Source of the DNA: Candidatus Saganbacteria bacterium
GTDB taxonomy: Bacteria > Margulisbacteria > WOR-1 > O2-12-FULL-45-9
Length of the DNA: 64,000 nt
Reading direction: 5' to 3'
Assembly: GCA_016932255.1 (NCBI GenBank)
Contig: JAFGDE010000014.1
Location: 1-64,000 of the forward strand
A program made the translations under genes and the position numbers. The number at the start of each line of letters is the position of its first letter. The stretch's first letter is position 1. The notes beneath the pieces are model-generated. The model saw only the letters and a program-made list of their open reading frames with translations, was not told the DNA's origin and made no database searches. This document shows positions 914 through 64,000 of the stretch, piece by piece.

Positions 914-1957
914 TCAGCCTCTGATGTCCCTGATGACAAAGATGATGCCGATCGTATCGCCGACGACCTTGTCTCTCAGCAGATTGGCGTTAATCAAGGA
1001 GGGCACGCGCTCGCCGTGCGGATCGATCAGCTCGGCCTCGAAGCGCAGGATCTCCTTCTTTTTATAGACGACCTCGTTGTAGAGCTGTTCATATTTTTTC
1101 GGGTTCTTGAACAGTGAGGCGAAATCGCGTGATTCCAGCTCGCAGTGGTCAACGCAGAAAAGCTTGGCCGCCTCTTCGTTGGCGAAAAGGATGTTGCCCT
1201 CGAAATCCGTAGCCAAGAGAGCGTCTGGCATAGTCTCAATTATCACATCTGCGGCGATCGAGGGAGAAACTGCGAACAAACTGTAACGCCGCATAGCCAG
1301 ATAGATGAAGAAGTTCATCACAGTAATATCGAAGACCGCGGTCGGAAAGATCGGCCTGACGCCCATGACCAGCGGCAGAACCTCGTCCGTTAACACGCCG
1401 ATCAAGAGGGGCAACAGGGAGCCGGTCGCGATGAAAAAGGCCTGCGTCTTGACGATTGGCTGGGCCGACTGTCTGCCGAAAGAAAAAAGCAGATAGATGC
1501 CCAGGAACGAATAGAAGACGGTGTGCAGGGTGAAAAGCCAATATAGCGGCGCCGGCTGGCTGACGATGCCGATCGGCCAGATCTCGTAGCGGGTATACAT
1601 CAGATTGGTCAGGCAGAACAGCAGAGAAAGCAGGCCGGGCGGCAGATAGAGGAAAACCAGGGTCCAGGGATTTTCCAGCAAGCGGTTCTTCTTGGCAAAG
1701 ATCAGTCCGAAATGAGCGAACATGGCAAAAACAAAAGCCCAGAGCGAAGTAGCGATACGGTTCAGGTCCCTGGCCAGCTCAAGGGTGAAAGCGATGCGCA
1801 GGGAATACTCAAGTATTGCGGCCAGGAAAGCGACTAAAGCGAACATGGCAAAGAACCGGGCGACCCTGTTCTCGTAGTGCCGCGTAAATATCTGAAAGCA
1901 CAGCAACAAGATAAAGAGCGATGCGGCTAATTCAAAATAAGGGAAGAGTATAGACAT
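914..1957 (-). CDS. Orphan membrane sensor: seven-helix N-terminal module plus PAS, no kinase or output domain
   Basis: A 347-residue membrane protein. Residues ~1-225 hold about seven hydrophobic helices resembling the 7TM N-terminal sensor module of histidine kinases. Residues ~230-345 are a PAS domain (IIETMPDALLATDFEGNILFANEEAAKLF, ending IIFVIRDIRG). The protein stops exactly where a kinase or GGDEF domain would begin, so output must come from a partner or it acts as a stand-alone sensor. It precedes mnmG by 12 bases. The promoter is textbook (TTGTCC, 17 bases, TATAAT) and ends 9 bases before the ATG, so the mRNA should be leaderless. Domain assignment is by eye; function unknown. Confidence 0.75.
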   Translation of the reverse strand: MSILFPYFELAASLFILLLCFQIFTRHYENRVARFFAMFALVAFLAAILEYSLRIAFTLELARDLNRIATSLWAFVFAMFAHFGLIFAKKNRLLENPWTLVFLYLPPGLLSLLFCLTNLMYTRYEIWPIGIVSQPAPLYWLFTLHTVFYSFLGIYLLFSFGRQSAQPIVKTQAFFIATGSLLPLLIGVLTDEVLPLVMGVRPIFPTAVFDITVMNFFIYLAMRRYSLFAVSPSIAADVIIETMPDALLATDFEGNILFANEEAAKLFCVDHCELESRDFASLFKNPKKYEQLYNEVVYKKKEILRFEAELIDPHGERVPSLINANLLRDKVVGDTIGIIFVIRDIRG

Positions 1958-1979
1958 TTCGCTTGAATTATAGTATATT
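1951..1979 (+). promoter_or_regulatory. Promoter of the pyrH-frr-uppS-cdsA-nadC operon
   Basis: TAGACA (1951-1956), a 17-base spacer and TATATT (1974-1979). The predicted transcript starts near 1986, leaving a short leader with GGAAGG ahead of the pyrH ATG at 2003. It overlaps the divergent promoter of the orphan sensor, so the two transcription units may interfere with each other. Confidence 0.55.
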
Positions 1980-1995
1980 TTTTGTGGAAGGACAA
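1967..1995 (-). promoter_or_regulatory. Promoter of the orphan sensor gene (leaderless type)
   Basis: On the minus strand TTGTCC (1995-1990), 17 bases, TATAAT (1972-1967). The -10 box ends 9 bases before the ATG at 1957, so transcription should begin at or within a few bases of the start codon. No Shine-Dalgarno is present. Confidence 0.65.
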
Positions 1996-2002
1996 GGTTT
2001 TA

Positions 2003-2731
2003 ATGGCTAGATACAAGCGCATCCTGCTTAAACTTTCCGGCGAGGTCTTTGGCGGCCAACAAAAATACGGTATTGACCTGGAGATCCTCAAGGTCCTGGC
2101 CGAAGAGATCAAGAGCGTTAAAAAACTCGGGGTCGATATCGCCGTGGTCGTCGGCGGCGGCAATATTTTCCGCGGCGTTTCCGGCGCGGTCAAAGGCATT
2201 GACCGGGCGACTGGTGATTACATGGGCATGCTCGCCACGGTCATCAATTCGCTCGCTCTCCAGGACGCTTTGGAGCGGGCAGATGTTCCCTCCCGGGTCC
2301 AGACCGCGATCGAAATGCGCGCCATTGCCGAACCTTTTATCCGGCGCCGGGCGATCCGGCATATGGAAAAAGGCCGGGTGGTCATTCTGGCGGCCGGCAC
2401 CGGCAATCCCTACTTTTCAACCGATACGACCGCGGCCCTGCGCGCGGCCGAGCTCGATGTTGACGTAGTGCTCAAGGCGACCAAGGTCGGCGGGGTCTAT
2501 GATAAAGACCCCATGGTCCATAAAGACGCGAAAAAGTTCAAAAAACTCTCGCACATGACCCTGATCCAGCGGCGGCTGCGCGTTCTGGATACGACCGCAG
2601 CTTCCCTGTGCATGGAGAATCGCATACCGATCATCGTGCTTGACCTGACAGCATCGGGCAGCATCAAGAAAGCGGTCCAGGGCAGAGAGGTCGGCACTTT
2701 AATCACCGTTGATAAAAAAGGAGGAGGCTAG
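2003..2731 (+). CDS. pyrH: UMP kinase
   Basis: Hexameric amino-acid-kinase-fold enzyme that phosphorylates UMP to UDP for RNA, DNA and wall precursor synthesis. The 242-residue product starts [17 protein letters not shown] and has [24 protein letters not shown] and [19 protein letters not shown], all diagnostic of PyrH. The ORF track begins at a TTG at 1982; I prefer the ATG at 2003 because GGAAGG sits just upstream and the protein then matches family length. First gene of pyrH-frr-uppS-cdsA-nadC; frr follows after 3 bases. This order is very widely conserved. Confidence 0.97.
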
Positions 2732-2734
2732 GCT

Positions 2735-3289
2735 ATGCAGGACGCGATCAAAGAAAGTGAAGCGAAAATGAAAAAAGCCGTGGACGTGCTGAAAAAGAAC
2801 TTCAGCGCTGTCAGGACGGGCCGGGCCAACCCGGCACTGTTGGACCATATTAATGTCGAATATTACGGCACAGAGGTCCCGCTCAAACAAATAGCCTCTA
2901 TTGCTGTGCCGGAGCCCCGCCAGCTGCTGGTCACGCCTTTTGATAAGACCGCTGCGCCGGCGATAGAGAAGGCCGTTCAAGCCTCTGATCTGGGCATCAA
3001 TCCTAAACGAGAAGCGGCCGCGATCCGCCTGATGCTGCCGGAGCCTTCCGAGGAGCGCCGCAAGGAACTGGTCAAAGTCATCAAGAAAGAGGCCGAGGAT
3101 GCTAAAGTAGCGATCCGCAATGTCCGGCGCGAAGCCAATGACACGCTCAAGAAGCAGAAGTCGGACAAGGCCATCACCGAGGATGACGAAAAGACCCTGG
3201 ACAAAAAGGTCCAGGACCTGACCAACAAGTTCTGCGCAGAGGTTGATTCCCTGACCTCAGGCAAAGAAAAAGAGGTCATGGAGGTCTAA
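2735..3289 (+). CDS. frr: Ribosome recycling factor
   Basis: tRNA-shaped protein that works with EF-G to split post-termination ribosomes. At 184 residues it is of normal length, with the expected three-helix-bundle ends and RTGRANPALLDHINVEYYGTEVPLKQIASIAVPEPRQLLV near the N-terminus; the C-terminus carries KKQKSDKAITEDDEK. GGAGG in the preceding GAAAAAGGAGGAGGC supports the ATG at 2735. Its last codons contain the Shine-Dalgarno of uppS, so the two are translationally linked. Confidence 0.97.
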   Translation: MQDAIKESEAKMKKAVDVLKKNFSAVRTGRANPALLDHINVEYYGTEVPLKQIASIAVPEPRQLLVTPFDKTAAPAIEKAVQASDLGINPKREAAAIRLMLPEPSEERRKELVKVIKKEAEDAKVAIRNVRREANDTLKKQKSDKAITEDDEKTLDKKVQDLTNKFCAEVDSLTSGKEKEVMEV

Positions 3290-3290
3290 G

Positions 3291-4788: not shown

Positions 4789-4794
4789 CGTAAA

Positions 4795-5712: not shown

Positions 5713-5718
5713 TATAAT
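5713..5718 (+). promoter_or_regulatory. -10 box of the UvrD-type helicase gene (leaderless type)
   Basis: TATAAT preceded by TGT, giving an extended -10 (TGnTATAAT). The upstream hexamer at 17-base spacing (TTCCGC) is weak. The box ends 9 bases before the ATG at 5728 and no Shine-Dalgarno lies between. Confidence 0.6.
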
Positions 5719-5727: not shown

Positions 5728-7815
5728 ATGCCCCACAAGTACGTATTAAAATCCCACTTTGGCGGCGATAAGAATTACCGCATTGACTATGCGAATGAGC
5801 TGACCGAAGAGCAATTGCCGGTCGTTACCGCAAAAGGCGGTCCGATGCTGGTCATTGCTGGTGCTGGCTCCGGCAAGACGCGCACGGTCACTTACCGCGT
5901 GGCTTATCTGGTCGAGTCCGGCGTGCCGCTGGACAGGATCCTGCTGGTTACTTTTACCAACAAGGCGGCGCGCGAGATGCTTTCCAGGGTCGAGCTTTTG
6001 CTCAAGCGCGATGTCAAAGGCATCTGCGGCGGCACGTTCCATCATGTCGGCAATTTAATGCTGCGCCGCCACGCGGATAAAGTCGGTTCCAACTCTAACT
6101 ACACGATTCTTGACCGGGCTGACGCCAAAGACCTGCTCGATTCCTGCATTGGTGAGGCCAATATCGACACAAAAACCAGGCGTTTTCCAAAAGCGGACGC
6201 GATCCTTTCGATCATTGGTTTGTCAGTCAACACCGGCCGCAACATTACCGATGTCATTGCCTATAATTATCCGCAATTCGAATCGTTAACCGATGAGATC
6301 GAAGGACTGGCCAAGCTCTATCACGACCGCAAGCGCAAACACGACATGATGGATTTCGACGATCTGTTGTGCCTCTGGCTCAAACTGCTGTCCGAGAACG
6401 CAGATGTCGCGGAGAAATACTCAAGAAAATTCCAGCACGTGCTGGTCGATGAATACCAGGACACGAACCTGATCCAGGCCAAGATCATTGACATCCTGGC
6501 GTCGCACCACCGCAACCTGACGGTCGTGGGCGACGATTCCCAGTCGATCTATTCTTTCCGCGGAGCGCATTTCAAGAACATCATGAAATTCCCCAAGGTC
6601 TACCCGGACGCCAAAGTGTTCAAGCTCGAGCTGAACCACCGCTCAACCCCGGAGATACTCAGCCTGGCCAATGAATCGATCGCTCTAGCCGGGGAAAAAT
6701 TCGATAAAGAACTGCGGGCCAACCGGCAGAGTGGCCAAAAGCCCGTGCTGGTGCCTCTGGCCACGGTCCACGAGCAAGCTGACTTTGTCGCCCAGCGGAT
6801 GCTTGAACTGCGCGAAGAGGGCCATTCATTGAATGACATGGCTGTGCTGTACCGCTCCCATTATCAGTCTATGGAAATACAAATGGAGCTGACCAAGCGC
6901 GGCATTCCTTTTGAGATCCGCTCGGGACTGCGCTTTTTTGAAGAGGCTCATATCAAAGATGTGCTGGCGCACTTAAAGATATTCCATAATCCCAGGGATG
7001 AGATCTCCTGGGGCAGGGCGCTCAAACTGCTGGAGCGGATCGGTCCGCGCACAGCGGAAAAGATATTCCAATTGATCAACCAGAGCCCCAGACCGCTTGA
7101 GGAAATTTTCTCCGAAACAATAGCCAAGCAAGTGCCGCGCGGCGGCGAACGCGCCTTCAAAGCCTTCCTTGAATTGTTAAAGCAGTTGGGCGAGCATGTT
7201 GACCAGCCAGCCGAGATGATCCGGGTTATTTCAGGATCGAATTATGCCGAGTATTTAAAGAACCAGTATCCCAACTGGCGCGAACGCTTAGAGGATCTTG
7301 AACAATTAGGCAGCTACTCTATCCAGTTCAAGGACCTTGAGGAATTACTCTCCGCCCTGGCCCTGGTCTCAGGCATCGAATCAGAGAATATTGTTGAGGG
7401 AGAAGAAGGCGATTCCGAGGCCTGCGTGCTTTCAACCGTTCATCAAGCCAAAGGCCTTGAGTGGAAGATCGTTTTTGTGGTCTGGCTGGCTGACGGCCGC
7501 TTCCCGTCCTACTTAAGTTTTGGTAAAGAAGAAGAAATGGAAGAAGAGCGCCGCTTGTTCTATGTGGCGGTCACCCGGGCCAAGGACGAACTGTATCTGT
7601 CCTATCCAATGATCTACTCAGGCTATGAAGGCCAGGTGCTGATGAAGACCTCCCGCTATCTTGAAGAAGTTCCGGAGGGCCTGTTCGATAAATGGGAGAT
7701 CGAGAACGAAGAGGAAGAAACGATCGACCTATCAGGTTTTCACGAAACCAAGGTCCGCGACCGCGATGACGGCTTTCAGGCTATCAGCTTGAATGATCTG
7801 GACTTTATGAAGTGA
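5728..7815 (+). CDS. UvrD/Rep/PcrA-family ATP-dependent DNA helicase
   Basis: Superfamily 1A 3'-5' helicase of 695 residues. Motifs in order: Q-motif region LTEEQLPVV, Walker A VIAGAGSGKT (~residue 45), motif Ia VTFTNKAAREM, Walker B VDEYQDTN (~residue 238), VGDDSQSIYSFRGA, LNHRSTPEI, STVHQAKGLEWKIVFV and YVAVTRAKDELYLSYP. This supports a role in repair and removal of protein blocks. Whether it is the PcrA, UvrD or Rep orthologue cannot be decided from sequence alone. An extended -10 box sits 9 bases before the ATG with no Shine-Dalgarno. Confidence 0.93.
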   Translation: MPHKYVLKSHFGGDKNYRIDYANELTEEQLPVVTAKGGPMLVIAGAGSGKTRTVTYRVAYLVESGVPLDRILLVTFTNKAAREMLSRVELLLKRDVKGICGGTFHHVGNLMLRRHADKVGSNSNYTILDRADAKDLLDSCIGEANIDTKTRRFPKADAILSIIGLSVNTGRNITDVIAYNYPQFESLTDEIEGLAKLYHDRKRKHDMMDFDDLLCLWLKLLSENADVAEKYSRKFQHVLVDEYQDTNLIQAKIIDILASHHRNLTVVGDDSQSIYSFRGAHFKNIMKFPKVYPDAKVFKLELNHRSTPEILSLANESIALAGEKFDKELRANRQSGQKPVLVPLATVHEQADFVAQRMLELREEGHSLNDMAVLYRSHYQSMEIQMELTKRGIPFEIRSGLRFFEEAHIKDVLAHLKIFHNPRDEISWGRALKLLERIGPRTAEKIFQLINQSPRPLEEIFSETIAKQVPRGGERAFKAFLELLKQLGEHVDQPAEMIRVISGSNYAEYLKNQYPNWRERLEDLEQLGSYSIQFKDLEELLSALALVSGIESENIVEGEEGDSEACVLSTVHQAKGLEWKIVFVVWLADGRFPSYLSFGKEEEMEEERRLFYVAVTRAKDELYLSYPMIYSGYEGQVLMKTSRYLEEVPEGLFDKWEIENEEEETIDLSGFHETKVRDRDDGFQAISLNDLDFMK

Positions 7816-12380: not shown

Positions 12381-12386
12381 TATAAT
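12381..12386 (+). promoter_or_regulatory. -10 box of ychF (leaderless type)
   Basis: TATAAT preceded by TGC, an extended -10 box, ending 9 bases before the ATG at 12396. No convincing -35 and no Shine-Dalgarno, so start-codon transcription is predicted. Confidence 0.6.
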
Positions 12387-15473: not shown

Positions 15474-16739
15474 ATGTCCTCTTTGAAGGATAAGCTTAAG
15501 GCTCTGCCGGCCAAGCCCGGCGTTTATCTCTTCAAAGGCAGATCCGGCGAGATCCTCTATGTCGGTAAAGCCAAATCGCTGCGCAAACGGGTCTCTTCCT
15601 ATTTTACCAAAGCTCATGATATTAAAACAACGGTCCTGCTCGACCGGCTGAGCGACATCGATTATATGGTAGCTGGTTCTGAGCTGGACGCCCTGATCCT
15701 TGAAGATGAGCTGATCAAGAAATACAAGCCTCGCTACAACATCGCCCTGCGCGATGACAAGGCTTACCCGTATCTTAAACTGACGATCAATGAAAAATGG
15801 CCGCGGCTGTTCATTGTCCGCCGTAAACAAAAGGATGGAGCGCTTTATTTCGGCCGCTTCCAGGGCGGCATGGTCAGAGAGATCATCCGCTTGGTCAAAA
15901 AGCTCTTTCCGATCCGTTGGTGCAAGGAAACGCCTCTGCGGCAAAGAGAACAACCCTGCCTTTTTTACCGGATCGGCAGCTGCTCCGGCCCCTGTATAGG
16001 CAAGATCGGTCACGAGGATTATCTGGCCTTGGTTCAGGCGATCGTTCCGCTGCTGCAGGGTACAATGGATAAGGCTCTGGACAATTTGCGGCAGGAAATG
16101 GACAAGGCATCGGCGCAGCAGGATTATGAGCGGGCGGCCTATTTGCGCGACCGCATCAACCTACTGGAAAAAATGGTCGAGAACCAAGGTTTGAGCCGTG
16201 CGCCTGTGCCGCGCAAGATCGAAGAGGTCGCTGAATTGCGCCGGGTACTTGGCCTTAAGACAGACCCCATGCGCATCGAAGGTTTTGATATTTCCAACAC
16301 CCAGGGACGCCAGGTCGTTGCTTCGATGGTCACGTTCTTTGGCGGACTGCCGCTCAAGGCCGATTATCGCCGTTTCAGGATCAGGAGCACCGGCGATCGT
16401 CCCAATGATGTCCTAGCTATGAGCGAGGTCGTTCTGAGGCGGTATTCCGGTCAGCTGGCCAGGAAACTTCCTTTACCTGATCTTATTCTAATAGATGGAG
16501 GGATCGCCCAGGTGAACACTGCGGCACTGGCTTTAACGCAGACAGGCCATAAAGACATCCCGGTCATCGGTTTGGCCAAGAAGAACGAGGAAATTTATTT
16601 GCCCAAGGCGAAAAAACCGCTAATCCTTGATAAACGAACCCCGGCGCTCAAACTGCTCCAGCGCGTTCGCGACGAAGCCCACCGTTTTGCCGTCGAATAT
16701 CACCGACACAAGCGTTCCAAATCCTTGTTTGGTAAATAG
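15474..16739 (+). CDS. uvrC: Short UvrC-like excinuclease subunit lacking the C-terminal HhH domain
   Basis: Nucleotide-excision-repair nuclease subunit. Present: GIY-YIG domain (PAKPGVYLFKGRSGEILYVGKAKSLRKRVSSYF), Cys-rich segment (WCKETPLRQREQPCLFYRIGSCSGPC), UVR motif (QQDYERAAYLRDRINLLEKM) and the RNase-H-like half (IEGFDISNTQGRQVVASM, LILIDGGIAQVN, RDEAHRFAVEYH). At 421 residues against ~600, it ends at HKRSKSLFGK, where other UvrCs continue into the tandem helix-hairpin-helix domain that helps 5' incision. The central region is also short. The stop is clean and the next promoter begins right there, so the shortening looks natural. Confidence 0.88.
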   Translation: MSSLKDKLKALPAKPGVYLFKGRSGEILYVGKAKSLRKRVSSYFTKAHDIKTTVLLDRLSDIDYMVAGSELDALILEDELIKKYKPRYNIALRDDKAYPYLKLTINEKWPRLFIVRRKQKDGALYFGRFQGGMVREIIRLVKKLFPIRWCKETPLRQREQPCLFYRIGSCSGPCIGKIGHEDYLALVQAIVPLLQGTMDKALDNLRQEMDKASAQQDYERAAYLRDRINLLEKMVENQGLSRAPVPRKIEEVAELRRVLGLKTDPMRIEGFDISNTQGRQVVASMVTFFGGLPLKADYRRFRIRSTGDRPNDVLAMSEVVLRRYSGQLARKLPLPDLILIDGGIAQVNTAALALTQTGHKDIPVIGLAKKNEEIYLPKAKKPLILDKRTPALKLLQRVRDEAHRFAVEYHRHKRSKSLFGK

Positions 16740-16753
16740 CAATGTGTTATGAT
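16725..16753 (+). promoter_or_regulatory. Promoter of the envC-like gene (leaderless type)
   Basis: TTGTTT (16725-16730), 17 bases, TATGAT (16748-16753), then 9 bases to the ATG at 16763. The -35 lies inside the last codons of uvrC. No Shine-Dalgarno. Confidence 0.6.
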
Positions 16754-21211: not shown

Positions 21212-21240
21212 TTGTGGCTGGCCCGGCGCTGTGATATATT
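21212..21240 (+). promoter_or_regulatory. Promoter of hisD (leaderless type)
   Basis: TTGTGG (21212-21217), exactly 17 bases, TATATT (21235-21240), then 7 bases to the ATG at 21248. The predicted start site falls on the start codon. The -35 begins directly after the stop of the upstream gene. Confidence 0.7.
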
Positions 21241-25545: not shown

Positions 25546-25574
25546 AGTATAGCAAAGTTATAGCATCCGGGCAA
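25546..25574 (-). promoter_or_regulatory. Promoter of leuD-archease (leaderless type)
   Basis: Minus strand TTGCCC (25574-25569), 17 bases, TATACT (25551-25546) with TGC before it, then 10 bases to the ATG. It lies inside the end of plsC. Confidence 0.65.
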
Positions 25575-26271: not shown

Positions 26272-26277
26272 AGTATA
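26272..26277 (-). promoter_or_regulatory. -10 box of plsC (leaderless type)
   Basis: Minus strand TATACT, 6 bases from the ATG at 26265. The hexamer 17 bases upstream is TTACGT, a poor -35. Confidence 0.5.
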
Positions 26278-28566: not shown

Positions 28567-28572
28567 AGTATA
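28567..28572 (-). promoter_or_regulatory. -10 box of aroE (leaderless type)
   Basis: Minus strand TATACT with TGC before it (extended -10), ending 9 bases before the ATG; TTTCTC lies at 17-base spacing. It overlaps the divergent promoter at 28579-28607. Confidence 0.6.
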
Positions 28573-34892: not shown

Positions 34893-34921
34893 TTGAACCC
34901 CGGCCCCCTTTTAGGTAAGAT
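34893..34921 (+). promoter_or_regulatory. Promoter of tyrA-aroA (leaderless type)
   Basis: TTGAAC (34893-34898), exactly 17 bases, TAAGAT (34916-34921), then 7 bases to the tyrA ATG at 34929. The -35 begins right after the upstream stop codon. Confidence 0.6.
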
Positions 34922-38211: not shown

Positions 38212-38235
38212 CTATTTATTATCGATAAAATCAGT

Positions 38236-39494: not shown

Positions 39495-39523
39495 GTTATA
39501 GCATATAGTATGTTATCCAGCAA
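39495..39523 (-). promoter_or_regulatory. Promoter of rlmD (leaderless type)
   Basis: Minus strand TTGCTG (39523-39518), 17 bases, TATAAC (39500-39495) preceded by TGC, then 8 bases to the ATG at 39486. Confidence 0.6.
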
Positions 39524-44675: not shown

Positions 44676-44704
44676 ATTTTAACATATTAAACCAGTTGGG
44701 TCAA
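44676..44704 (-). promoter_or_regulatory. Promoter of the ilvB-ilvN-ilvC operon (leaderless type)
   Basis: Minus strand TTGACC (44704-44699), exactly 17 bases, TAAAAT (44681-44676) with TGT before it (extended -10), then 9 bases to the ATG at 44666. A leaderless start leaves no room for a classical leader-peptide attenuator. Confidence 0.75.
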
Positions 44705-47256: not shown

Positions 47257-47588
47257 TATTGCGCCCCCGGCGGCAGCAGGGTGACCAAATCCTCTGTCCT
47301 GGCATGCTCAAAAAAATAATTAAGCAGTTCCTTGAACTTAGCCAGGTCCGCGTCTTTGCCCTGTTTTTCATCGATAAATATCTTTTTCTCGTGATTGTCG
47401 TACTTGTAGACATCAAGTGCGTACGTTTTGCTCGATTGATAGATCAGCACCCAGTGGCCGTCATCAATGCCCAGGGCCATCTTGCTGCCATTGGGCAGTG
47501 TCAGTTCCTCGTTCTTCAATGCCACCGTGCCAACGAAGTGCTGGTCCAGGAAATTGATATTATCCAAACTGGTCATTACACGTGTCAT
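47256..47588 (-). CDS. Protein of unknown function (110 residues) heading the ilvD operon
   Basis: Unrecognised, mixed alpha/beta: FVGTVALKNEELTLPNGSKMALGIDDGHWVLIYQSSKTYALDVYKYDN then a charged helix (DADLAKFKELLNYFFEHA). No signal peptide. I keep the ATG at 47588 because a full promoter (TTGTGC, 17 bases, TATAAT) ends 11 bases upstream; an internal ATG at 47576 is possible. Co-transcribed with the 74-residue gene and ilvD. Confidence 0.6.
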   Translation of the reverse strand: MTRVMTSLDNINFLDQHFVGTVALKNEELTLPNGSKMALGIDDGHWVLIYQSSKTYALDVYKYDNHEKKIFIDEKQGKDADLAKFKELLNYFFEHARTEDLVTLLPPGAQ

Positions 47589-47599
47589 GTTCAGGCAAT

Positions 47600-47628
47600 A
47601 TTATAATGCAACTGCGCCAAAAGCACAA
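47600..47628 (-). promoter_or_regulatory. Promoter of the orf110-orf74-ilvD unit (leaderless type)
   Basis: Minus strand TTGTGC (47628-47623), 17 bases, TATAAT (47605-47600), then 11 bases to the ATG at 47588. It is back to back with the aroC promoter. Confidence 0.65.
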
Positions 47629-47642
47629 ATGACCAGGGCTTC

Positions 47643-47671
47643 TTGCCTCGCTGCTGACCGCGTGCTATAAT
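47643..47671 (+). promoter_or_regulatory. Promoter of aroC (leaderless type)
   Basis: TTGCCT (47643-47648), exactly 17 bases, TATAAT (47666-47671) preceded by TGC, then 9 bases to the ATG at 47681. No Shine-Dalgarno. Confidence 0.7.
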
Positions 47672-47680
47672 CGCCTCGAC

Positions 47681-48721
47681 ATGTTGCGTTATTTGACCGC
47701 AGGAGAATCCCACGGCAAAGCCCTGGTGGCGGTGCTCGAAGGCTGTCCGGCCAATCTGCCTCTGTCTGAAGAGGATATCGACCGGGAGTTGGAACGGCGG
47801 CAGCAGGGTTACGGCCGCGGCGCGCGGATGCAACTTGAGACCGATAAGGTCGAGATCATTTCCGGCGTCAGGCAGGGCAAGACCATGGGCAGCCCGATTG
47901 CCCTGCGCCTGGCCAACCGCAGCATGGAATTCTTTGACCAGGCCGTGACCGCGGCGCGGCCAGGCCACGCCGACCTGGCCGGTTCGCTCAAATACGGCCA
48001 GCGGGATATCAGAAATATTCTTGAGCGCGCCTCAGCCAGGGAAACTGCGGCTAAAGTAGCGTTGGGCGCCATTGCCAAAAAGCTGCTGTCTCAGTTCAAG
48101 ATCAATATTTTCAGCAAAGTGCTGGAGATCGGCGGCAAGACCAGCGAGAAGGACTGGAAAAAAGCCATCGACGCAGCCAAAGAAGCCGGCGATACCCTGG
48201 GCGGGATCTTCGAACTAACCGTCACCGGTTGTCCGGTCGGTCTGGGCAGCCATGTTCACTGGGACCGCCGCTTGAGCGCCAACCTGGCCAGAGCGATCAT
48301 GGGCATTCCTGCGATTAAAGGGGTAGAGTTTGGCCAGGGCTTTGAAGTTGCCGCTGTGCCTGGCTCCGAGGCCCATGACGAAATATTCTTTACCAAAGAT
48401 AAAGGTTATTTTCGCAAGACGAACCACGCGGGCGGGCTTGAAGGCGGTATGACCAATGGTGAGCCGCTGATCCTGCGCGCGGCGGTCAAGCCGATCGCGA
48501 CCCTGAAAAAACCTCTAAAATCAATTGATATAGCAACAAAAAAGGCCGTGGAGGCTTTAGTGGAGCGTTCAGATGTAACCGCTGTTGAACCAGCGGCTGT
48601 GATCGGCGAGGCCGTGGTGGCCCTGACCCTGGCCGAGGCCCTGGTGGAAAAATTCGGCGGCGATGTTCTGGATGATATACTTGCTTCGTTCAACCACTAT
48701 GTAGGCCGTTTGATGAAATAG
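47681..48721 (+). CDS. aroC: Chorismate synthase
   Basis: FMN-dependent last step of the shikimate pathway. 346 residues: MLRYLTAGESHGKALVAVLEGCPANLPLSEEDIDRELERRQQGYGRGARMQ, then RPGHADLAGSLKYGQRDIRNILERASARETAAKVALGAIAKKLL and HAGGLEGGMTNGEPLILRAAVKPIATL. All three family signatures are present. Divergent from the ilvD unit; the rpsP promoter follows. Confidence 0.97.
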   Translation: MLRYLTAGESHGKALVAVLEGCPANLPLSEEDIDRELERRQQGYGRGARMQLETDKVEIISGVRQGKTMGSPIALRLANRSMEFFDQAVTAARPGHADLAGSLKYGQRDIRNILERASARETAAKVALGAIAKKLLSQFKINIFSKVLEIGGKTSEKDWKKAIDAAKEAGDTLGGIFELTVTGCPVGLGSHVHWDRRLSANLARAIMGIPAIKGVEFGQGFEVAAVPGSEAHDEIFFTKDKGYFRKTNHAGGLEGGMTNGEPLILRAAVKPIATLKKPLKSIDIATKKAVEALVERSDVTAVEPAAVIGEAVVALTLAEALVEKFGGDVLDDILASFNHYVGRLMK

Positions 48722-52355: not shown

Positions 52356-52361
52356 TATAAT
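52356..52361 (+). promoter_or_regulatory. -10 box of rnhB (leaderless type)
   Basis: TATAAT ending 7 bases before the ATG at 52369; CTGGAA lies at 17-base spacing. No Shine-Dalgarno between box and start. Confidence 0.55.
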
Positions 52362-57227: not shown

Positions 57228-59679
57228 TCGCTTGGCGAATGCCGCTAAGTTCATTGAGGCGCCTATCCAGTAAATTTTGCGCTCGTTTCTTGCTCAGGCC
57301 TTCCGGGAACTGAAGTTGAAATTCATAATACAGATCTTGGTGCGCTTGCGGGGCCGGCACCGAGCAACCCTTGATATTGGCGTTTATCTGATCAAATATT
57401 GCCAGCAGTCCGGACAGGACATCTCCGCTCTTTGATACCCTCAATCTCAGATCGATCTTTTGACCTCGCCAGGTCGCCGGCGCCGGCAGGTCTAGATATA
57501 ACTCTTCTATCTTTCCCTGTAGTGCTGACAACTGCTCTTTGGTCGTGGCCAAGCCGAAAGTGACCAGGCTGAAATCATTGTTGCCCACGGTCGCGTGTTC
57601 AATGGAGCGCAGTTTTATATCTTGTTCTTCGGCCAACTGAAGGACGCGATATATAACCCCGCGCTGTTTGGTCTGGGTTAGGAGCTGAAGCTGAGCCAAC
57701 CGGCCGTACTGTTTTACCGAACTTAACACCAGATTGTTGCGCAGCTGCTTTCTTGCATTGTCCATGAAAGGATCATCAGCCTTAAGCAGGGCGAGGGTGA
57801 TAAAGAATTCATTTTCAGAGGCAAAGCCGCTTAGTTTTACTATTCTGGGCAAAGAATATTGCTCTGATGGTTTGGCATCAAAATAGTCCCTGAAGTCTGC
57901 GAATTCGCGGCGTAAATTTTCTTTTAAAGCCTCAAGGCGTTTTTTGCCTTGTTCGGTCAATCGCTGTTGGTCCAAGGGTGATTGCCTATCCAGCAGGAAG
58001 TGATCTTTAGCCTGAAGCAGGGCCCTAGCCAGGGGAGTGGATACTTTATTGGCGCGATTGCCCATGATCAAATGAGGAGAACTGGCTCTGATGGAAACTA
58101 CCTGACCGTTTTCCAGAGAATCATAGACTTTAGCCGGTTCATCGTCGATCGTGCCGCCGACCGTGCGCAAGCCCTTTTCCAGGTTTATGGCAAAGGCCAG
58201 GTCAAGCAAGACCGGTTTTTGCCTTGAACCGGTGGCCAGATGATATAATGTTCCGTTGTTGTCATATACAAAAAACGAACCATTATTGAGCAACCCTGTT
58301 TTCCTCTCGTTGAAACGTGTTTCAGCATCGGGCATATCTTCCGACCCTTCAGCGAAACTTTGCCCCATCTTATAGCCGGCGTGAGCTGCGCTGCCCATCT
58401 CGGCTTTGCGGTCCATGGCCGCGGTACGTATCTGGACCTCGAACTCGTAACCGGTCAGGGGATTCCGGAAGAGTATATGCAGTGATTGATAGCCGTTCTC
58501 TTTCGGATTGCCGATATAGTCATCAAATTCATCAACGACATCTAGCCAGGAGCCCTGCTTTTCGAACAGGTCTTTTAATTCAGAGCGCAGCCCAAAGCAG
58601 TCGTAGGCTTGTTCGGAGTGAATTATCACACGGATGCCGTTAATGTCCCGCACATCGCCCTTTTTCTCCTGCTTCTCGAGCGCGCTGGAGACGCGTTTTA
58701 CCCGGTATTTGATGCCGGCTGGCATATTTAGCAGTTCGCAGGTAATGGCTATGTCCCCGGCCAGGCTGGCAAGCTGCCTCATTGATTCGGCGCGGCTCAT
58801 ACCCATTTTCTCCTCCATGTGATCCTGCATATTGTGGAAATCACTGCTCCTGAGATGGACCATGGCGAGGTCTTTTAGTTTGCCGGCCAGATCTTCATGA
58901 GCTGACTTACCTGTTTTCTCATCCTTTGTCTCTGGTTGGATGTTTAAAATGCGGAATATCGAGGAAGTGACAGCATAGGCGCGGTGGGCATGGAACAAGA
59001 AAGGGCCCATCGTATCATTTTCTTCAGGACTTAATTCTTCCGAGAAAAGATCACGTGTCTGAGGTTTTGACGCTTCGTTGTATTCCTCCAGGATGAGCAT
59101 ATCCTTGGCCCCTAAAAGCATCAGCACACCGTGGTCCCTGGCTTTTAGAAAAAGCAAGTCTCTCAGATAAACACCCTGATTCTCGATCGAAGGGTCAAAT
59201 TTGTAAGCATCCAATTGATCGAAATTCTCGAGCGTTTGGCTGAGCTCTTTTTCTTTGATCTGGGCCGGATCATGGCTCATGACCAAGGCTGTGGCGATGG
59301 CATTACTTGGGGCGGACCATTCAGTCAGCAGGAAAGCAGTCCTGAGATTTTTTTCCTGAGTCTCTGTAGGCAGCTTATCGTGATAGCGAAAGGCTTTTTC
59401 AACCAATTTGAGTTCCTTGGCTGTTCTATTAGATAAAAGTCCAAGAAGGGCGTCTCTGGGGCTTTGACTGGCTGAGCTGGTCCTGGCCGCGCCGTCTGTG
59501 CTGCTGGTCATCATTAATATTGGCAGGCTTGGCCCGCCGGCCATGGCTGGCTGGAAGCCAAGCAGGGCTTCAGGATTAGGGCAGATCCAGCGCTCGACCC
59601 GTTGCAGATTGCGGTGCACGGGATTGACGATCCTGCGTGTGAACCATGACGGTCCTGTTGTGGCTGGGCGCACTTTCAT
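57217..59679 (-). CDS. Divergent RelA/SpoT-type protein with degenerate hydrolase domain
   Basis: 820 residues. The ppGpp synthetase domain is clear: KYRVKRVSSALEKQEKKG, VRDINGIRVIIHS, DEFDDYIGNPKENGYQSLHI, YEFEVQIRTAAMDRKAEMGSAAHAGYK. A TGS-like segment (LDLAFAINLEKGLRTVGGTI) and C-terminal regulatory regions follow. The preceding helical region aligns with the HD hydrolase domain, but only fragments such as SHDPAQ and SSDFHNM remain, so hydrolysis is probably lost. The N-terminal ~70 residues are unrecognised. Likely a synthetase-only enzyme. It is divergent from tRNA-Gln, with -35 boxes forming one palindrome. Confidence 0.82.
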   Translation of the reverse strand: MKVRPATTGPSWFTRRIVNPVHRNLQRVERWICPNPEALLGFQPAMAGGPSLPILMMTSSTDGAARTSSASQSPRDALLGLLSNRTAKELKLVEKAFRYHDKLPTETQEKNLRTAFLLTEWSAPSNAIATALVMSHDPAQIKEKELSQTLENFDQLDAYKFDPSIENQGVYLRDLLFLKARDHGVLMLLGAKDMLILEEYNEASKPQTRDLFSEELSPEENDTMGPFLFHAHRAYAVTSSIFRILNIQPETKDEKTGKSAHEDLAGKLKDLAMVHLRSSDFHNMQDHMEEKMGMSRAESMRQLASLAGDIAITCELLNMPAGIKYRVKRVSSALEKQEKKGDVRDINGIRVIIHSEQAYDCFGLRSELKDLFEKQGSWLDVVDEFDDYIGNPKENGYQSLHILFRNPLTGYEFEVQIRTAAMDRKAEMGSAAHAGYKMGQSFAEGSEDMPDAETRFNERKTGLLNNGSFFVYDNNGTLYHLATGSRQKPVLLDLAFAINLEKGLRTVGGTIDDEPAKVYDSLENGQVVSIRASSPHLIMGNRANKVSTPLARALLQAKDHFLLDRQSPLDQQRLTEQGKKRLEALKENLRREFADFRDYFDAKPSEQYSLPRIVKLSGFASENEFFITLALLKADDPFMDNARKQLRNNLVLSSVKQYGRLAQLQLLTQTKQRGVIYRVLQLAEEQDIKLRSIEHATVGNNDFSLVTFGLATTKEQLSALQGKIEELYLDLPAPATWRGQKIDLRLRVSKSGDVLSGLLAIFDQINANIKGCSVPAPQAHQDLYYEFQLQFPEGLSKKRAQNLLDRRLNELSGIRQAIIL

Positions 59680-59687: not shown

Positions 59688-59732
59688 GTTATCGCCTGGT
59701 TAATTGAAAAATTTCAACCTGATTGTTATACT
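59688..59732. promoter_or_regulatory. Divergent promoters sharing a -35 palindrome (RelA-like gene / tRNA-Gln)
   Basis: The palindrome TTGAAAAATTTCAA (59704-59717) supplies TTGAAA on both strands. Plus: 17 bases to TATACT (59727-59732), start expected ~59740, just before the tRNA. Minus: 18 bases to GATAAC (59693-59688), 8 bases from the RelA-like ATG. The two polymerases cannot occupy the site together. Confidence 0.65.
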
Positions 59733-59746
59733 ATCAAAGCAAGCAC

Positions 59747-59817
59747 TGGCGGGTCGTCTAATGGTAGGACAACAGATTTTGGTTCTGTTTATCGGGGTTC
59801 GAGTCCCTGCCCGCCAG
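59747..59817 (+). tRNA. tRNA-Gln (anticodon TTG)
   Basis: Full cloverleaf: acceptor TGGCGGG/CCCGCCA with discriminator G, D-arm GTC...GAC with AATGGTA, anticodon stem ACAGA/TCTGT with loop TTTTGGT (TTG reads CAA, and CAG by wobble), T-arm CGGGG TTCGAGT CCCTG. CCA is not encoded. A consensus promoter lies directly upstream. Confidence 0.97.
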
Positions 59818-60041: not shown

Positions 60042-60042
60042 C

Positions 60043-60684
60043 TTATTTGCCCAGCAGGCATACTTCCGTATCGTTAAGCATCAAAAGCTTGAGGCAAAAC
60101 ATTTCAGAGAGCCGCTCAAACGTCCTTGGCGTATAAAAAGAAATGTGCGTGGCATCGCGTCGGTACCACCAGTCTAGAAAAGCCTTGTCGTCATTAGGGT
60201 GGAATTTTGTCTTAACGGCAATGATGCCCTTCTTGTTCAGCCGAGATGCCAATGACTTCAAGACAATGGCCGGATCGGGCAAATGCTCAAAGACCTCGGT
60301 GACGGTGATCAGGTCGTATTTGTTGTTCTGCCAGGCGTCTTCCGGCGCAAAGAATTTATCATAGATATCGACCGTAAACCCCGCCCGGCGCAGCAGCTGT
60401 GCCAGCACGGGTATTGGGCCGGAACCAAAGTCCAGGATGCGGCCTTTAGCCGGACAATAGGGCAGGACCGCCAGATCAATAAAGGCTTGCTGCATGCTGA
60501 CATAACCTTTATTATCAAAACCATTATTGTGGAATTGATATTGTTTCTTTTCCTCTGCCGGCGAAATGACCTTTGACCCTTCCAAAAAAATGTACCCACA
60601 GGCCGGGCAGGCATGATACGTGTGATCATATTGCTTGTCAAAAAGCGGGCGGGCCTGTTGAGTGCAGATCTTACAGGTGACCAT
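60043..60684 (-). CDS. Zinc-ribbon class I SAM-dependent methyltransferase
   Basis: 213 residues. N-terminal treble-clef-like cysteines (CKICTQQARPLFDKQYDHTYHACPACGYIFLEG, two C-x2-C pairs), then a methyltransferase fold: GRILDFGSGPIPVLAQLLRRAGFTVDIYDKFF (SAM site), YDLITVTEVFEHLPDPAIVLKSLASRLNKKGIIAVKT and HISFYTPRTFERL. The small-molecule or glycan substrate is unknown. ATG 60684 is chosen over the upstream TTG because TATAAT ends 8 bases before it. Its stop lies 2 bases from the tRNA-tail duplicate. Confidence 0.85.
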   Translation of the reverse strand: MVTCKICTQQARPLFDKQYDHTYHACPACGYIFLEGSKVISPAEEKKQYQFHNNGFDNKGYVSMQQAFIDLAVLPYCPAKGRILDFGSGPIPVLAQLLRRAGFTVDIYDKFFAPEDAWQNNKYDLITVTEVFEHLPDPAIVLKSLASRLNKKGIIAVKTKFHPNDDKAFLDWWYRRDATHISFYTPRTFERLSEMFCLKLLMLNDTEVCLLGK

Positions 60685-60692
60685 ATGGATCA

Positions 60693-60698
60693 ATTATA
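60693..60698 (-). promoter_or_regulatory. -10 box of the methyltransferase gene (leaderless type)
   Basis: Minus strand TATAAT ending 8 bases before the ATG at 60684. No recognisable -35 at 16-19 bases. Confidence 0.5.
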
Positions 60699-60719
60699 GA
60701 TCATCCAGACGGCATTATC

Positions 60720-60748
60720 TTGTTTGCCCCGGCGATTTTTGCTATACT
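60720..60748 (+). promoter_or_regulatory. Promoter of ftsK (leaderless type)
   Basis: TTGTTT (60720-60725), exactly 17 bases, TATACT (60743-60748) preceded by TGC, then 9 bases to the ATG at 60758. Confidence 0.65.
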
Positions 60749-60757
60749 CATTCCAGA

Positions 60758-63064
60758 ATGCCCCCGAAAAAGAAGAACAATAAGAAGAAGCGCTCCAGGA
60801 CTGAGCAGCCGGAGAGCAAGATCCCCTCTAAGTTCAAGCAAGATATAGTCGGCATTTTATTGCTGGCCCTGGCGGTCTTTGTTTTTGTGGCCAATCTATC
60901 TTCCGCCACCGGCCTGGTCGGTTTTTTTGTGGTCAAGACGTTCCTGCGTTCGGCCATGGGGGTTGGCGTGCTGGTCCTGCCGTTCTTTATCGGTCTTTAT
61001 GGCCTGATCCTCTTGCTGCGCCATGAGATCAAAGAACTGACAGTGCGTTTGTTCGGCCTGCTGATCCTTTTTCTGACCTATATAACAGTTGCCCAGTTCT
61101 ATGAAGCCGGTTATTTTACTGATGTTGAATCGGTCTATTTTGCCGGCGCCGGCGGCCTGATCGGCTACGGCGCGCATTACGCCCTGGTCAGGACCGTCGG
61201 TGTCTGGGGCGCTTATATCATCTTAACGGCACTGGCCCTGATCGGCGGCCTGATGCTGGCTAATGTGACGGTGTTGACCCTGGTCAATTTCTTAAAGCAT
61301 CTCTTTAAGCCGCAGCCGCTTGAGGAAAAAGCAACGCCAGCGGCTAAGAAGGCCGCCCTGCCGAACAAGGAATTCAAGTTGCCGCTGCCGCTGAAGAAAA
61401 AGGTGGAAACTGGCGAGGTCAAGGTTGAAAAAGGCAAGCCTGAGCAAGCTGACCCGCTCAAAGCCCCGCCGCCACCGCCGCCTCCGGTCGTCATCCATTC
61501 GACCGTGACCAGGGAAGAGAAAGATTACAAAGAGCCGGCCAAGGGCAAACAAGAACCTTATTTGACGTTGCACAAGGAAACAGTGGTTCAGGAAAAGGTC
61601 AACGTGATAGGCGATTATAAACTGCCGCCGCTGACCCTGCTTCAAGGACAGACAGCGGATGAACGCAAGCAAGCCAAGGAGATGCAGGGCCAGATCCAGG
61701 CGCGTAAGGATCAGCTGGAGCAGGCCTTGCGCAGCTTCGGCATCGGTGCGCACGTTGTTGAGATCTTCCAGGGGCCGGCCGTGACCCGTTATGAGCTTCA
61801 GCCTGAGCCCGGAGTAAAGGTCAGCCGGATCAACAATCTGGCCAATGATATCTCTCTGGCCATGGCTGCGCAGGGCATCAGGATCGAGGCGCCGGTGCCT
61901 GGCAAATCCGTTGTCGGCATCGAAGTCCCGAATCCAGTGGTCACTCCGGTCCGTATCAAAGAGATCGCCGAGAGCAAGATATTCCAGAACAGCCACTCCA
62001 AGCTGGCTTTCTGCATCGGTAAAGACCTGGCGGGACACCCGATCGTGGGGGACCTTGAGAAAATGCCCCACCTGCTGATCGCCGGCACGACCGGTTCTGG
62101 CAAGAGTGTCTGCATCAATTCGCTGATAACCAGCATTTTGCTACGGGCCGCGCCGCATGAGGTCAAGTTCATCATGATCGACCCGAAAATGGTCGAGCTC
62201 TCTATCTATAACGGTATCGGCCACCTGCTGGCCCCTGTCGTGACCAACGTGAAAAAAGCGGCGATCACGCTTAAGGCCTGGGTGCTTCAGGAAATGAACC
62301 GCCGCTACCAGCTTTTCCATGATGCGGGCGCGCGCAATATCACCGCTTATAATAAAAAAGGCAAGGACCCGGCTGATAGACTGCCGCATTTGGTCGTTGT
62401 GGTCGATGAACTGGCCGACCTGATGATGGTTGCGGCAAATGAGGTGGAGGGGGCCATTTGCCGTATTGCCCAAATGGCGCGGGCTACCGGCATCCATATG
62501 GTCATTGCCACCCAACGGCCTTCTGTTGATGTTATTACCGGATTGATCAAGGCCAATATTCCGTCACGCATCGCCTTTGCCGTGGCCACGCAGATTGATT
62601 CCCGGGTCATTCTTGACTCGTCCGGTGCGGAAAAGCTCCTGGGCCGTGGCGATATGCTCTATAGCCCGATTGGTGCGATGAAGCCGACCAGGCTGCAGGG
62701 CGCTTTTGTCACGGATGGAGAGACTGAAAAGGTCATTGAATATATTAAGAAACAATGCGAACCGGAGTATATCGAAGAGATCCAAACGCTCAAGCCAATG
62801 GACCTGGAACGCGGAGCAGGCGCTTCCAACGGTGATGGCGCCGACCGCGACGAGCTGTTCGGTGAAGTAGCCAAGCTGATCGTGGGCAGCGGCCAGGCTT
62901 CGACCTCGTACGTGCAAAGGAAATTCCGGATCGGTTATAACCGTGCCGCGCGCTTGATGGATGAAATGGAAGCCGCAGGCATAGTCTCAGCGCCTGAAGG
63001 GGAGAATAAACCGCGCAGGATATTGGCCACTACGGAAAGTCTTGCTTCACTGGGGATAAGTTAA
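60758..63064 (+). CDS. ftsK: FtsK/SpoIIIE DNA translocase
   Basis: Septal DNA pump for chromosome segregation. 768 residues from ATG 60758: a Lys-rich start, four TM helices (~25-190), a short linker with a Pro tract (KAPPPPPPPV), alpha/beta motor domains with FGIGAHVVEIFQGPAVTRYELQPEPGVKVSRI, Walker A IAGTTGSGKSVCINSLITSIL, Walker B LVVVVDELADLMMVAANEVE, AQMARATGIHMVIATQRPSVDVITGLIKANIPSRIAF, and a C-terminal winged-helix gamma domain (ASTSYVQRKFRIGYNRAARLMDEMEAAGIV). The ORF track's start at 60662 is too early. Confidence 0.96.
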   Translation: MPPKKKNNKKKRSRTEQPESKIPSKFKQDIVGILLLALAVFVFVANLSSATGLVGFFVVKTFLRSAMGVGVLVLPFFIGLYGLILLLRHEIKELTVRLFGLLILFLTYITVAQFYEAGYFTDVESVYFAGAGGLIGYGAHYALVRTVGVWGAYIILTALALIGGLMLANVTVLTLVNFLKHLFKPQPLEEKATPAAKKAALPNKEFKLPLPLKKKVETGEVKVEKGKPEQADPLKAPPPPPPPVVIHSTVTREEKDYKEPAKGKQEPYLTLHKETVVQEKVNVIGDYKLPPLTLLQGQTADERKQAKEMQGQIQARKDQLEQALRSFGIGAHVVEIFQGPAVTRYELQPEPGVKVSRINNLANDISLAMAAQGIRIEAPVPGKSVVGIEVPNPVVTPVRIKEIAESKIFQNSHSKLAFCIGKDLAGHPIVGDLEKMPHLLIAGTTGSGKSVCINSLITSILLRAAPHEVKFIMIDPKMVELSIYNGIGHLLAPVVTNVKKAAITLKAWVLQEMNRRYQLFHDAGARNITAYNKKGKDPADRLPHLVVVVDELADLMMVAANEVEGAICRIAQMARATGIHMVIATQRPSVDVITGLIKANIPSRIAFAVATQIDSRVILDSSGAEKLLGRGDMLYSPIGAMKPTRLQGAFVTDGETEKVIEYIKKQCEPEYIEEIQTLKPMDLERGAGASNGDGADRDELFGEVAKLIVGSGQASTSYVQRKFRIGYNRAARLMDEMEAAGIVSAPEGENKPRRILATTESLASLGIS

Positions 63065-63116
63065 TCTCTTTGGCTAGAACAGCCTGCTCGCGTTCGACCA
63101 TCTCTTATTTTGGTCC

Positions 63117-63788
63117 TTACAGGCAGGGTTGGTTAAAGAGTCCGCGCTTTTGTCTTGAGCTGATCGATATCCTCGGTAAATTGTGCTCATTTTTCGTGCT
63201 AATTACCATATTGATCTCTACATCAACATCTTCCGATTCAGCTTCTGAAAGATCGATCGGTCCTCGATCCTCGTGATTGACCTCGACGACCCGGGCCCCT
63301 TTTGACAAGCCGAGAAAAAAACCTAGAGCGATTACGTTATGCAAATAGAGTCTATTTATCCCTTCGGCCGCAATATGGTTCAAAGCGATGCTGGCCATAG
63401 CCTGACCGATCCCTTTGAGACCTCTCCTGGCTTCTTCAATAACCCTCATGGCCAACTTCTCGTTTTGCCCCATATAATCATGGCTCATTGAGGTTATTGC
63501 AATTTGTTTGCGAGGAACCATCTGATAATCAAAATGTCCTATCAGTGTCGGGAGCAAGGGCAGGTCCTGATTTGGCTCAAGAGCCAGGATCCTGTAAGGC
63601 GTTCCGTAAAAAACAGTGGAGCCTGTTTCTCCCTCAAGGAGACGGAAGAGGATCTCTCGACCCTGACCATTGACAATTGTACTGATCTCATGTTGACGAA
63701 CTTGGACCCTGCCGGGGTTTTGTCTCACTAGACGTCTCTGAAGGGCAGTTGGGATAGAAATTAATGATAGTTTTATAGATGATGGCAT
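63117..63788 (-). CDS. Protein of unknown function, possible GNAT-like fold
   Basis: 223 residues, not recognised. The centre (GLKGIGQAMASIALNHIAAEGINRLYLHNVIALGFFLGLSKGARVVEV) resembles the acetyl-CoA loop and C-terminal half of GNAT acetyltransferases, but this is weak. The N-terminus is Arg/Ser-rich and beta-like; the C-terminus is acidic then basic. No signal peptide. It converges on ftsK, with ~50 non-coding bases between. A TATATG lies 10 bases before the ATG. Confidence 0.5.
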   Translation of the reverse strand: MPSSIKLSLISIPTALQRRLVRQNPGRVQVRQHEISTIVNGQGREILFRLLEGETGSTVFYGTPYRILALEPNQDLPLLPTLIGHFDYQMVPRKQIAITSMSHDYMGQNEKLAMRVIEEARRGLKGIGQAMASIALNHIAAEGINRLYLHNVIALGFFLGLSKGARVVEVNHEDRGPIDLSEAESEDVDVEINMVISTKNEHNLPRISISSRQKRGLFNQPCL

Positions 63789-63846
63789 TATCCAGCCTCA
63801 TATAAATATCGATCATTTTCGTCTATAATTTCATGGTCTGATTAGG

Positions 63847-63852
63847 TATAAT
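63847..63852 (+). promoter_or_regulatory. -10 box of the DUF89 gene (leaderless type)
   Basis: TATAAT ending 9 bases before the ATG at 63862. A second TATAAT sits 23 bases upstream (63824-63829). No clear -35, no Shine-Dalgarno. Confidence 0.5.
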
Positions 63853-63861
63853 GGTCATGAT

Positions 63862-64000
63862 ATGAAAGCTTTTCTGGAATGCATCAGCTGTATCATCCGC
63901 CAGACCATCGATATCCTCTATCGCACGGTTAAAAAACCTGCCGCAAGGCACAAGATCCTCTCCGCAGTGATTCGGGAATTGGCCGGAACTGATATCCACC
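63862..64000 (+). CDS. DUF89/damage-control phosphatase family protein, 5' part only
   Basis: The first 46 codons before the window ends: MKAFLECISCIIRQTIDILYRTVKK...ILSAVIRELAGTDIH. The ECxxCxxRQ start is the hallmark of bacterial and archaeal DUF89 (ARMT1-like) proteins, metal-dependent phosphatases proposed to remove damaged phosphometabolites. Open to the edge, so it is absent from the ORF track. Confidence 0.8.
   Translation, partial: MKAFLECISCIIRQTIDILYRTVKKPAARHKILSAVIRELAGTDIH

What the first reader, a model, noticed from the sequence alone, without database searches (positions are those of the whole stretch)
1955..63864. Pervasive leaderless transcription: -10 boxes ending 6-11 bases before start codons
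At about twenty gene starts the -10 hexamer ends 6-11 bases before the start codon with no Shine-Dalgarno: sensor 1957(-), helicase 5728, ychF 12396, envC-like 16763, hisD 21248, leuD 25535(-), plsC 26265(-), aroE 28557(-), tyrA 34929, orf268 38211(-), rlmD 39486(-), ilvB 44666(-), orf110 47588(-), aroC 47681, rnhB 52369, apbE 53999, RelA-like 59679(-), methyltransferase 60684(-), ftsK 60758, DUF89 63862. At least nine have a TTG-type -35 exactly 17 bases upstream, and many are extended (TGn). All head transcription units; operon-internal genes have Shine-Dalgarno or ATGA coupling. Leaderless genes are known in several phyla, but I know of no description for this lineage.
Basis: partly seen in the sequence, partly recalled or inferred. 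Interest (0 to 1): 0.78.

Follow-up and report, generated by a model that had tools for sequence, protein, structure and literature searches.

The report
Leaderless genes in a WOR-1 bacterium
In this uncultured bacterium from a lineage near the cyanobacteria, about a third of the genes that begin a transcript carry their promoter right up against the start codon, so their messages should start at, or three bases before, the first codon with no ribosome-binding leader; this is known in other bacteria but apparently undescribed in this group.

Summary
In the window, 17 of the 20 listed starts have a hexamer within one mismatch of TATAAT ending 6-11 nt before the start codon. None of the 20 has a Shine-Dalgarno (SD) motif, 10 have TTG exactly 17 bp further up, and 11 are extended (TGn). 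Three (tyrA, apbE, relA-like) are weak. The pattern is genome-wide: over 1.19 Mb of the same genome, 37% of divergent gene heads have such a -10 at gap 4-11, against 5-6% in control positions and 4% at operon-internal starts. The sites are textbook sigma70 promoters, nearly free of SD motifs (4/122 against 167/422). The same code finds nothing in E. coli and finds the known leaderless genes of Deinococcus deserti. The genome belongs to the WOR-1 lineage (Saganbacteria/Margulisbacteria). The signal is present in all 31 genomes of its class and conserved at orthologues. One refinement: gap-9 sites have a purine exactly at the expected +1, so these mRNAs probably carry a 3-nt leader (RNN-AUG). 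I found no earlier report for this lineage in the open-access library. Leaderless genes are a known bacterial trait, so this is a new lineage for a known kind. RNA 5' ends were not available.

The parts
1967..1972 (-). -10 TATAAT, 9 nt before sensor start at 1957; -35 TTGTCC at 1990-1995 (spacer 17)
5713..5718 (+). -10 TATAAT (TGn), 9 nt before UvrD-type helicase start at 5728
12381..12386 (+). -10 TATAAT (TGn), 9 nt before ychF start at 12396; conserved just before ychF in families f1, f2, f8, f9
16748..16753 (+). -10 TATGAT (TGn), 9 nt before envC-like start at 16763; -35 TTGTTT at 16725-16730 (spacer 17); start lies 23 nt after a co-directional gene
21235..21240 (+). -10 TATATT (TGn), 7 nt before hisD start at 21248; -35 TTGTGG at 21212-21217
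25546..25551 (-). -10 TATACT (TGn), 10 nt before leuD start at 25535; -35 TTGCCC at 25569-25574
26272..26277 (-). -10 TATACT (TGn), 6 nt before plsC start at 26265
28567..28572 (-). -10 TATACT (TGn), 9 nt before aroE start at 28557
34916..34921 (+). weak -10 TAAGAT (2 mismatches), 7 nt before tyrA start at 34929; -35 TTGAAC at spacer 17
38218..38223 (-). -10 GATAAT, 6 nt before orf268 start at 38211 (start uncertain: the codon caller prefers 38163)
39495..39500 (-). -10 TATAAC (TGn), 8 nt before rlmD start at 39486; -35 TTGCTG at spacer 17
44676..44681 (-). -10 TAAAAT (TGn), 9 nt before ilvB start at 44666; -35 TTGACC (5/6) at 44699-44704
47600..47605 (-). -10 TATAAT, 11 nt before orf110 start at 47588; -35 TTGTGC at spacer 17
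47666..47671 (+). -10 TATAAT (TGn), 9 nt before aroC start at 47681; -35 TTGCCT at 47643-47648
52356..52361 (+). -10 TATAAT, 7 nt before rnhB start at 52369
59688..59693 (-). weak -10 GATAAC (2 mismatches), 8 nt before RelA-like start at 59679; -35 TTGAAA (5/6) at spacer 18
60693..60698 (-). -10 TATAAT, 8 nt before methyltransferase start at 60684; divergent from ftsK
60743..60748 (+). -10 TATACT (TGn), 9 nt before ftsK start at 60758; -35 TTGTTT at 60720-60725
63847..63852 (+). -10 TATAAT, 9 nt before DUF89 start at 63862

Best explanation
These are housekeeping sigma70-type promoters (TTGAnn - 17 bp - TRTGn - TATAAT) placed so that RNA polymerase starts transcription at the A of the start codon (gaps 6-8) or three bases before it (gap 9, probably 10-11). 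The mRNAs therefore have no leader or a 3-nt leader, cannot carry a Shine-Dalgarno sequence, and are probably translated by the leaderless route (5'-terminal AUG bound by 70S ribosomes, as described in other bacteria). Genes inside operons keep SD-led initiation, and the anti-SD tail of 16S rRNA is intact in relatives. About a third of divergent transcript heads in this WOR-1 genome use this architecture, and it is shared across its class. Promoter position, motif, SD exclusion and conservation are shown by sequence. The exact 5' ends and the translation step are inferred.
For: Position: gap-resolved peak at 6-10 only, 78/212 divergent heads at gap 4-11, control about 5%; expectation-maximisation settles on TATAAT with most weight at gaps 6-11. 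Promoter identity: 40/122 have >=4/6 TTGACA at spacer 17 against 2-10 at other spacers, TTG in 37; 74/122 TGn; aligned consensus TRTGnTATAAT. SD exclusion: 4/122 against 167/422, p = 1e-17. Controls: E. coli 2/40; D. deserti TANNNT 13/46 against 1.6 expected, peaking at gap 6. Breadth: TATAATN6-10ATG against N20-24 ratio 1.94 in 31 class genomes (minimum 1.33) and 1.06 in 23 genomes of other phyla. Conservation: ychF -10 kept next to ATG across families; orthologues of leaderless heads also leaderless 26/38 against 24/120, p = 1e-7. Starts: N-termini align at offset 0 for most orthologue pairs; AroC, IlvB, AroE and YchF domains begin at residues 2-7. +1: gap-6 sites have a pyrimidine at -1 (92%), gap-9 sites a purine at -3 (90%); class-wide 771 R against 308 Y with about 316 expected of each. 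16S tail GGATCACCTCCTTTCT intact in relatives.
Against: No RNA 5' ends, ribosome profiling or N-terminal proteomics are available. Further upstream promoters could add leadered transcripts for some genes. Divergent heads 150 bp or more from their neighbour use the architecture less (25%), and co-directional genes with gaps over 60 nt hardly do (6-10%). About 5-6% of matches among heads are expected by chance.
Confidence: 0.9

Rival explanations
1. The AT-rich hexamer is a translational element (non-canonical AT-rich RBS or S1-binding site, as in the FCB group), not a promoter.
For: It lies at RBS-like distances; AT-rich RBSs exist in the FCB group (PMC9581028) and S1 sites have been discussed for other phyla (PMC5397173). 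S1-like proteins are present in the genome and its relatives.
Against: The motif comes with a -35 box at exactly 17 bp and TRTGn, is largely absent at operon-internal starts (20/473), and is TATAAT in full. A ribosome-binding motif would not need any of these.
Confidence: 0.04
2. The promoters are real but the start codons are wrong: transcription starts there and translation begins at a downstream in-frame codon, giving ordinary leaders.
For: Start calls were made by codon statistics and can err; three of 20 window starts differ from the caller's choice.
Against: Conserved domains begin within the first residues for AroC, IlvB, AroE, YchF and TyrA; orthologue alignments start at residue 1 in both species for most genes, with the same ATG-adjacent -10. 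A downstream start would truncate these proteins.
Confidence: 0.03
3. The hexamers are chance or AT-rich intergenic composition.
For: Intergenic DNA is AT-richer than coding DNA; a few per cent of heads match at any position.
Against: Sharp positional peak against flanking positions of the same sequences, no peak in E. coli with the same code, ratio 1.06 in other phyla.
Confidence: 0.01

Closest known systems
Leaderless genes of Deinococcus-Thermus (e.g. Deinococcus deserti)
   Same: -10 element ending about 6 nt before the start codon at a large share of gene heads; recovered with the same code (28% of heads). Zheng et al. 2011 (PMC3160421) predict around 40% of genes in this group.
   Different: Deinococcus uses a degenerate TANNNT and is GC-rich; here the -10 is near-consensus TATAAT with TRTGn and often a -35 at 17 bp.
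Leaderless transcripts of Mycobacterium (PMC3898074, PMC4633059)
   Same: Mixed genome with leaderless heads and SD-led genes; 22% of M. tuberculosis TSSs begin with RTG (PMC4633059).
   Different: Mycobacteria strongly favour RTG at +1; here a substantial gap-9 group appears to place AUG at +4. GTG is a minor start here (9/122).
TA-led genes with TG-extended Pribnow box, e.g. Lactococcus (PMC3160421)
   Same: Extended -10 directly upstream of the start codon.
   Different: In Lactococcus the -35 is suggested to be missing; here 56/122 keep a >=4/6 -35 at spacer 16-18.
GeneMarkS-2 class of bacteria with leaderless transcription (Lomsadze et al. 2018, as cited in PMC9581028)
   Same: That class is reported for 21.6% of representative bacterial species, with up to 40% of transcripts.
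   Different: I could not read the species list, so whether any WOR-1/Margulisbacteria genome was included is unknown.

Membership tests
Bacterial leaderless genes with sigma70-type promoters | -10 hexamer positioned so that +1 falls at or within a few nt of the start codon | tested here: met
   Peak at gaps 6-11, EM motif TATAAT
Bacterial leaderless genes with sigma70-type promoters | No Shine-Dalgarno sequence upstream of these starts | tested here: met
   4/122 against 167/422 other heads
Bacterial leaderless genes with sigma70-type promoters | Concentrated at transcript heads, depleted inside operons | tested here: met
   37% of divergent heads, 25% at co-directional gaps of 26-60 nt, 4% internal; a few operon-internal cases exist
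Bacterial leaderless genes with sigma70-type promoters | Mapped RNA 5' end at the start codon | not testable with these tools
   No transcriptome data; only initiator-nucleotide statistics
Bacterial leaderless genes with sigma70-type promoters | Translation from the 5'-terminal AUG | not testable with these tools
   Needs ribosome profiling or a reporter
WOR-1 / Saganbacteria-Margulisbacteria lineage (host) | Closest named genome in the GTDB-based collection | tested here: met
   YchF best hit is WOR-1 bacterium RIFCSPLOWO2_02_FULL_46_20, 64% identity; its genome has the same pattern counts as G054, which is in the window's family
Non-canonical AT-rich RBS (FCB type) | Motif present at operon-internal starts and without promoter -35 partner | tested here: not met

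The most novel reading that the evidence does not exclude
A whole bacterial class near the cyanobacterial lineages uses leaderless heads as a stable, vertically inherited system with two leader lengths, 0 and 3 nt, the second giving RNN-AUG 5' ends that are initiated efficiently, unlike the strong +1 preference of mycobacteria.
Probability: 0.45. Interest if true: 0.5.

Novelty: new member of a known kind. Interest (0 to 1): 0.38.

Why it matters
It adds an uncultured class, one of the close neighbours of the cyanobacteria (PMC6349859), to the lineages with abundant leaderless genes, which bears on whether this mode is ancestral in bacteria. Practically, gene callers that expect an SD motif may misplace starts in these genomes, and the promoter rule found here (TRTGnTATAAT ending 6-9 nt before ATG) locates starts, promoters and transcript heads from sequence alone. 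The clean purine signal at the expected +1 of gap-9 sites makes the 0-nt versus 3-nt leader question directly testable with 5'-end mapping.

Tried and rejected
The whole genome was not available as a file, so 1.19 of 1.67 Mb was taken in stretches, as the tool suggested. 16S rRNA was not found in this assembly, so the anti-SD was read from relatives. Considered and rejected: AT-rich RBS, misplaced starts, composition artefact (see rivals). Looked for a base bias after the start in leaderless genes: nothing clear. A triplet preference at -3..-1 of gap-9 sites (ATT, GTT, GTC among the commonest) was seen but not pursued, because counts are small. An rpsA search gave S1-like hits in every relative, all below the curated cut-off, as in 12 of the 14 control genomes, so it says little. 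Lomsadze et al. 2018 is not held in the library. Some literature calls failed on syntax.
Full report
What was checked. The window is the first 64 kb of contig C24 of a 1.67 Mb draft genome, 90% complete. Its YchF protein is closest, at 64% identity, to that of the WOR-1 bacterium RIFCSPLOWO2_02_FULL_46_20. That genome has the same pattern counts as G054, a member of the window's own family. The host is therefore a WOR-1 (Saganbacteria/Margulisbacteria) bacterium.

The 20 sites. Re-measured one by one, 17 of the 20 have a hexamer within one mismatch of TATAAT (eight exact), all ending 6-11 nt before the start codon. Ten have TTG exactly 17 bp upstream of the -10, eleven carry TGn, none has an SD 4-mer. 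tyrA, apbE and the RelA-like gene have two mismatches and should not be used as examples. A gene caller based only on codon statistics, blind to upstream sequence, picked 17 of the 20 starts independently.

Genome-wide test. I took 1.19 Mb of the same genome (GC 53.8%) and called 1052 genes. Divergent heads have a -10-like hexamer at gap 4-11 in 78 of 212 cases, against 5% at gap 40-47; the peak is confined to gaps 6-10(11). Co-directional genes with 26-60 nt gaps give 30/119, operon-internal genes 20/473. Expectation-maximisation started from TATAAT but free to move in sequence and position settles on TATAAT with about 65% of its weight at gaps 6-11.

These are promoters. Among 122 heads with the motif, 40 have at least 4/6 of TTGACA at spacer 17, against 2-10 at other spacers, and 37 have TTG there against 0-6 elsewhere. 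TGn is found in 74, and the aligned consensus is TRTGnTATAAT. SD motifs are nearly absent (4/122) while other heads have them at 167/422 (Fisher p = 1e-17). A ribosome-binding element would not have these properties.

Controls. The same code on 200 kb of E. coli K-12 gives 2/40 heads with the motif against 1.9 expected. On 200 kb of Deinococcus deserti plasmid 1, a known leaderless organism, it gives 13/46 for TANNNT against 1.6 expected, peaking at gap 6.

Breadth. Without any gene calling, counts of TATAATN6-10ATG were compared with TATAATN20-24ATG (sums). All 31 genomes of the window's class exceed 1.3, total ratio 1.94, with family f2 at 2.59. Twenty-three genomes of other phyla give 1.06. 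Outside the class but inside the phylum it varies: f30 (8 genomes) 1.98, f25 2.2, but about 1.1 or less in f14, f22, f24 and f29.

Conservation. Upstream of ychF the -10 is kept immediately before the ATG in genomes of families f1, f2, f8 and f9 while the sequence around it has diverged; in some other genomes, several of which look like operon contexts, the box is missing. For reciprocal-best orthologues that are heads in both genomes, a leaderless gene here is leaderless in the relative in 26 of 38 pairs, a non-leaderless one in 24 of 120 (p = 1e-7). In most orthologue pairs the alignment begins at the same residue in both proteins, so the start codons are right (domain positions).

Where transcription starts. 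sigma70 promoters usually start about 7 bases after the -10 (established knowledge). At gap 6 this base is the A of AUG, and the base before it is a pyrimidine in 92% of cases. At gap 9 this base is position -3, and it is a purine in 90% (27/30) in this genome, 88% pooled with three relatives. Over 31 genomes, gap-9 sites have 771 purines against 308 pyrimidines there, with about 316 of each expected from background; the neighbouring base shows no such excess (42% purine). The whole excess of gap-9 sites thus has a purine at the expected +1. The simplest reading is a 3-nt leader, RNN-AUG. In M. tuberculosis RTG at +1 outnumbers the next four positions combined (PMC4633059), so a sizeable +4 group would be a modest difference. 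Outside this genome the gene-based gap-9 sample is small (8 of 10).

Translation. The 16S 3' end of relatives is GGATCACCTCCTTTCT, a normal anti-SD, and internal genes carry SD motifs in 52% of cases. The organism therefore appears to run two initiation modes. That the leaderless mRNAs are translated by 70S binding to the 5' AUG is inferred from work in other bacteria (PMC4633059, PMC9031893).

What is known. Zheng et al. 2011 (PMC3160421) found leaderless genes in 207 of 953 bacterial genomes, mainly Actinobacteria (about 20%) and Deinococcus-Thermus (about 40%). Lomsadze et al., as cited in PMC9581028, put leaderless transcription in 21.6% of bacterial species. No paper in the open-access library couples leaderless genes with Margulisbacteria, and none of the WOR-1/Melainabacteria papers listed mentions them. 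The finding is a well-supported new lineage for a known trait.

Limits. Everything rests on sequence. The share of leaderless genes (about 31% of divergent heads after subtracting background) depends on a one-mismatch rule and on codon-based start calls; about 28% of the genome was not examined.

Noticed in passing
families f14, f22, f24, f29 against f25, f30 and the window's class: Within the same phylum the leaderless signal ranges from absent to strong, which suggests gains or losses inside the phylum.
   Followed up: partly
window 60684-60758 and 47588-47681: Divergent gene pairs (methyltransferase/ftsK, orf110/aroC) separated by only 73 and 92 bp, with two leaderless promoters back to back whose -35 regions lie close together or overlap.
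   Followed up: no
window, about 40 nt upstream of 63862: A second TATAAT lies upstream of the DUF89 -10, at the place where its -35 would be.
   Followed up: no
G095 (LaPlata-15m-a_bin-654), G093 (Ktedonobacterales bin_006), G084 (Chloroflexi bin.33): Control genomes with raised ratios (2.0, 2.0, 1.5) in the TATAAT-ATG spacing test, the first two on small counts; possible leaderless use there.
   Followed up: no
G000 co-directional genes with gaps over 60 nt: These genes rarely have the leaderless box (6-10%) although their intergenic space would allow it; either they are operon members or use leadered promoters.
   Followed up: partly
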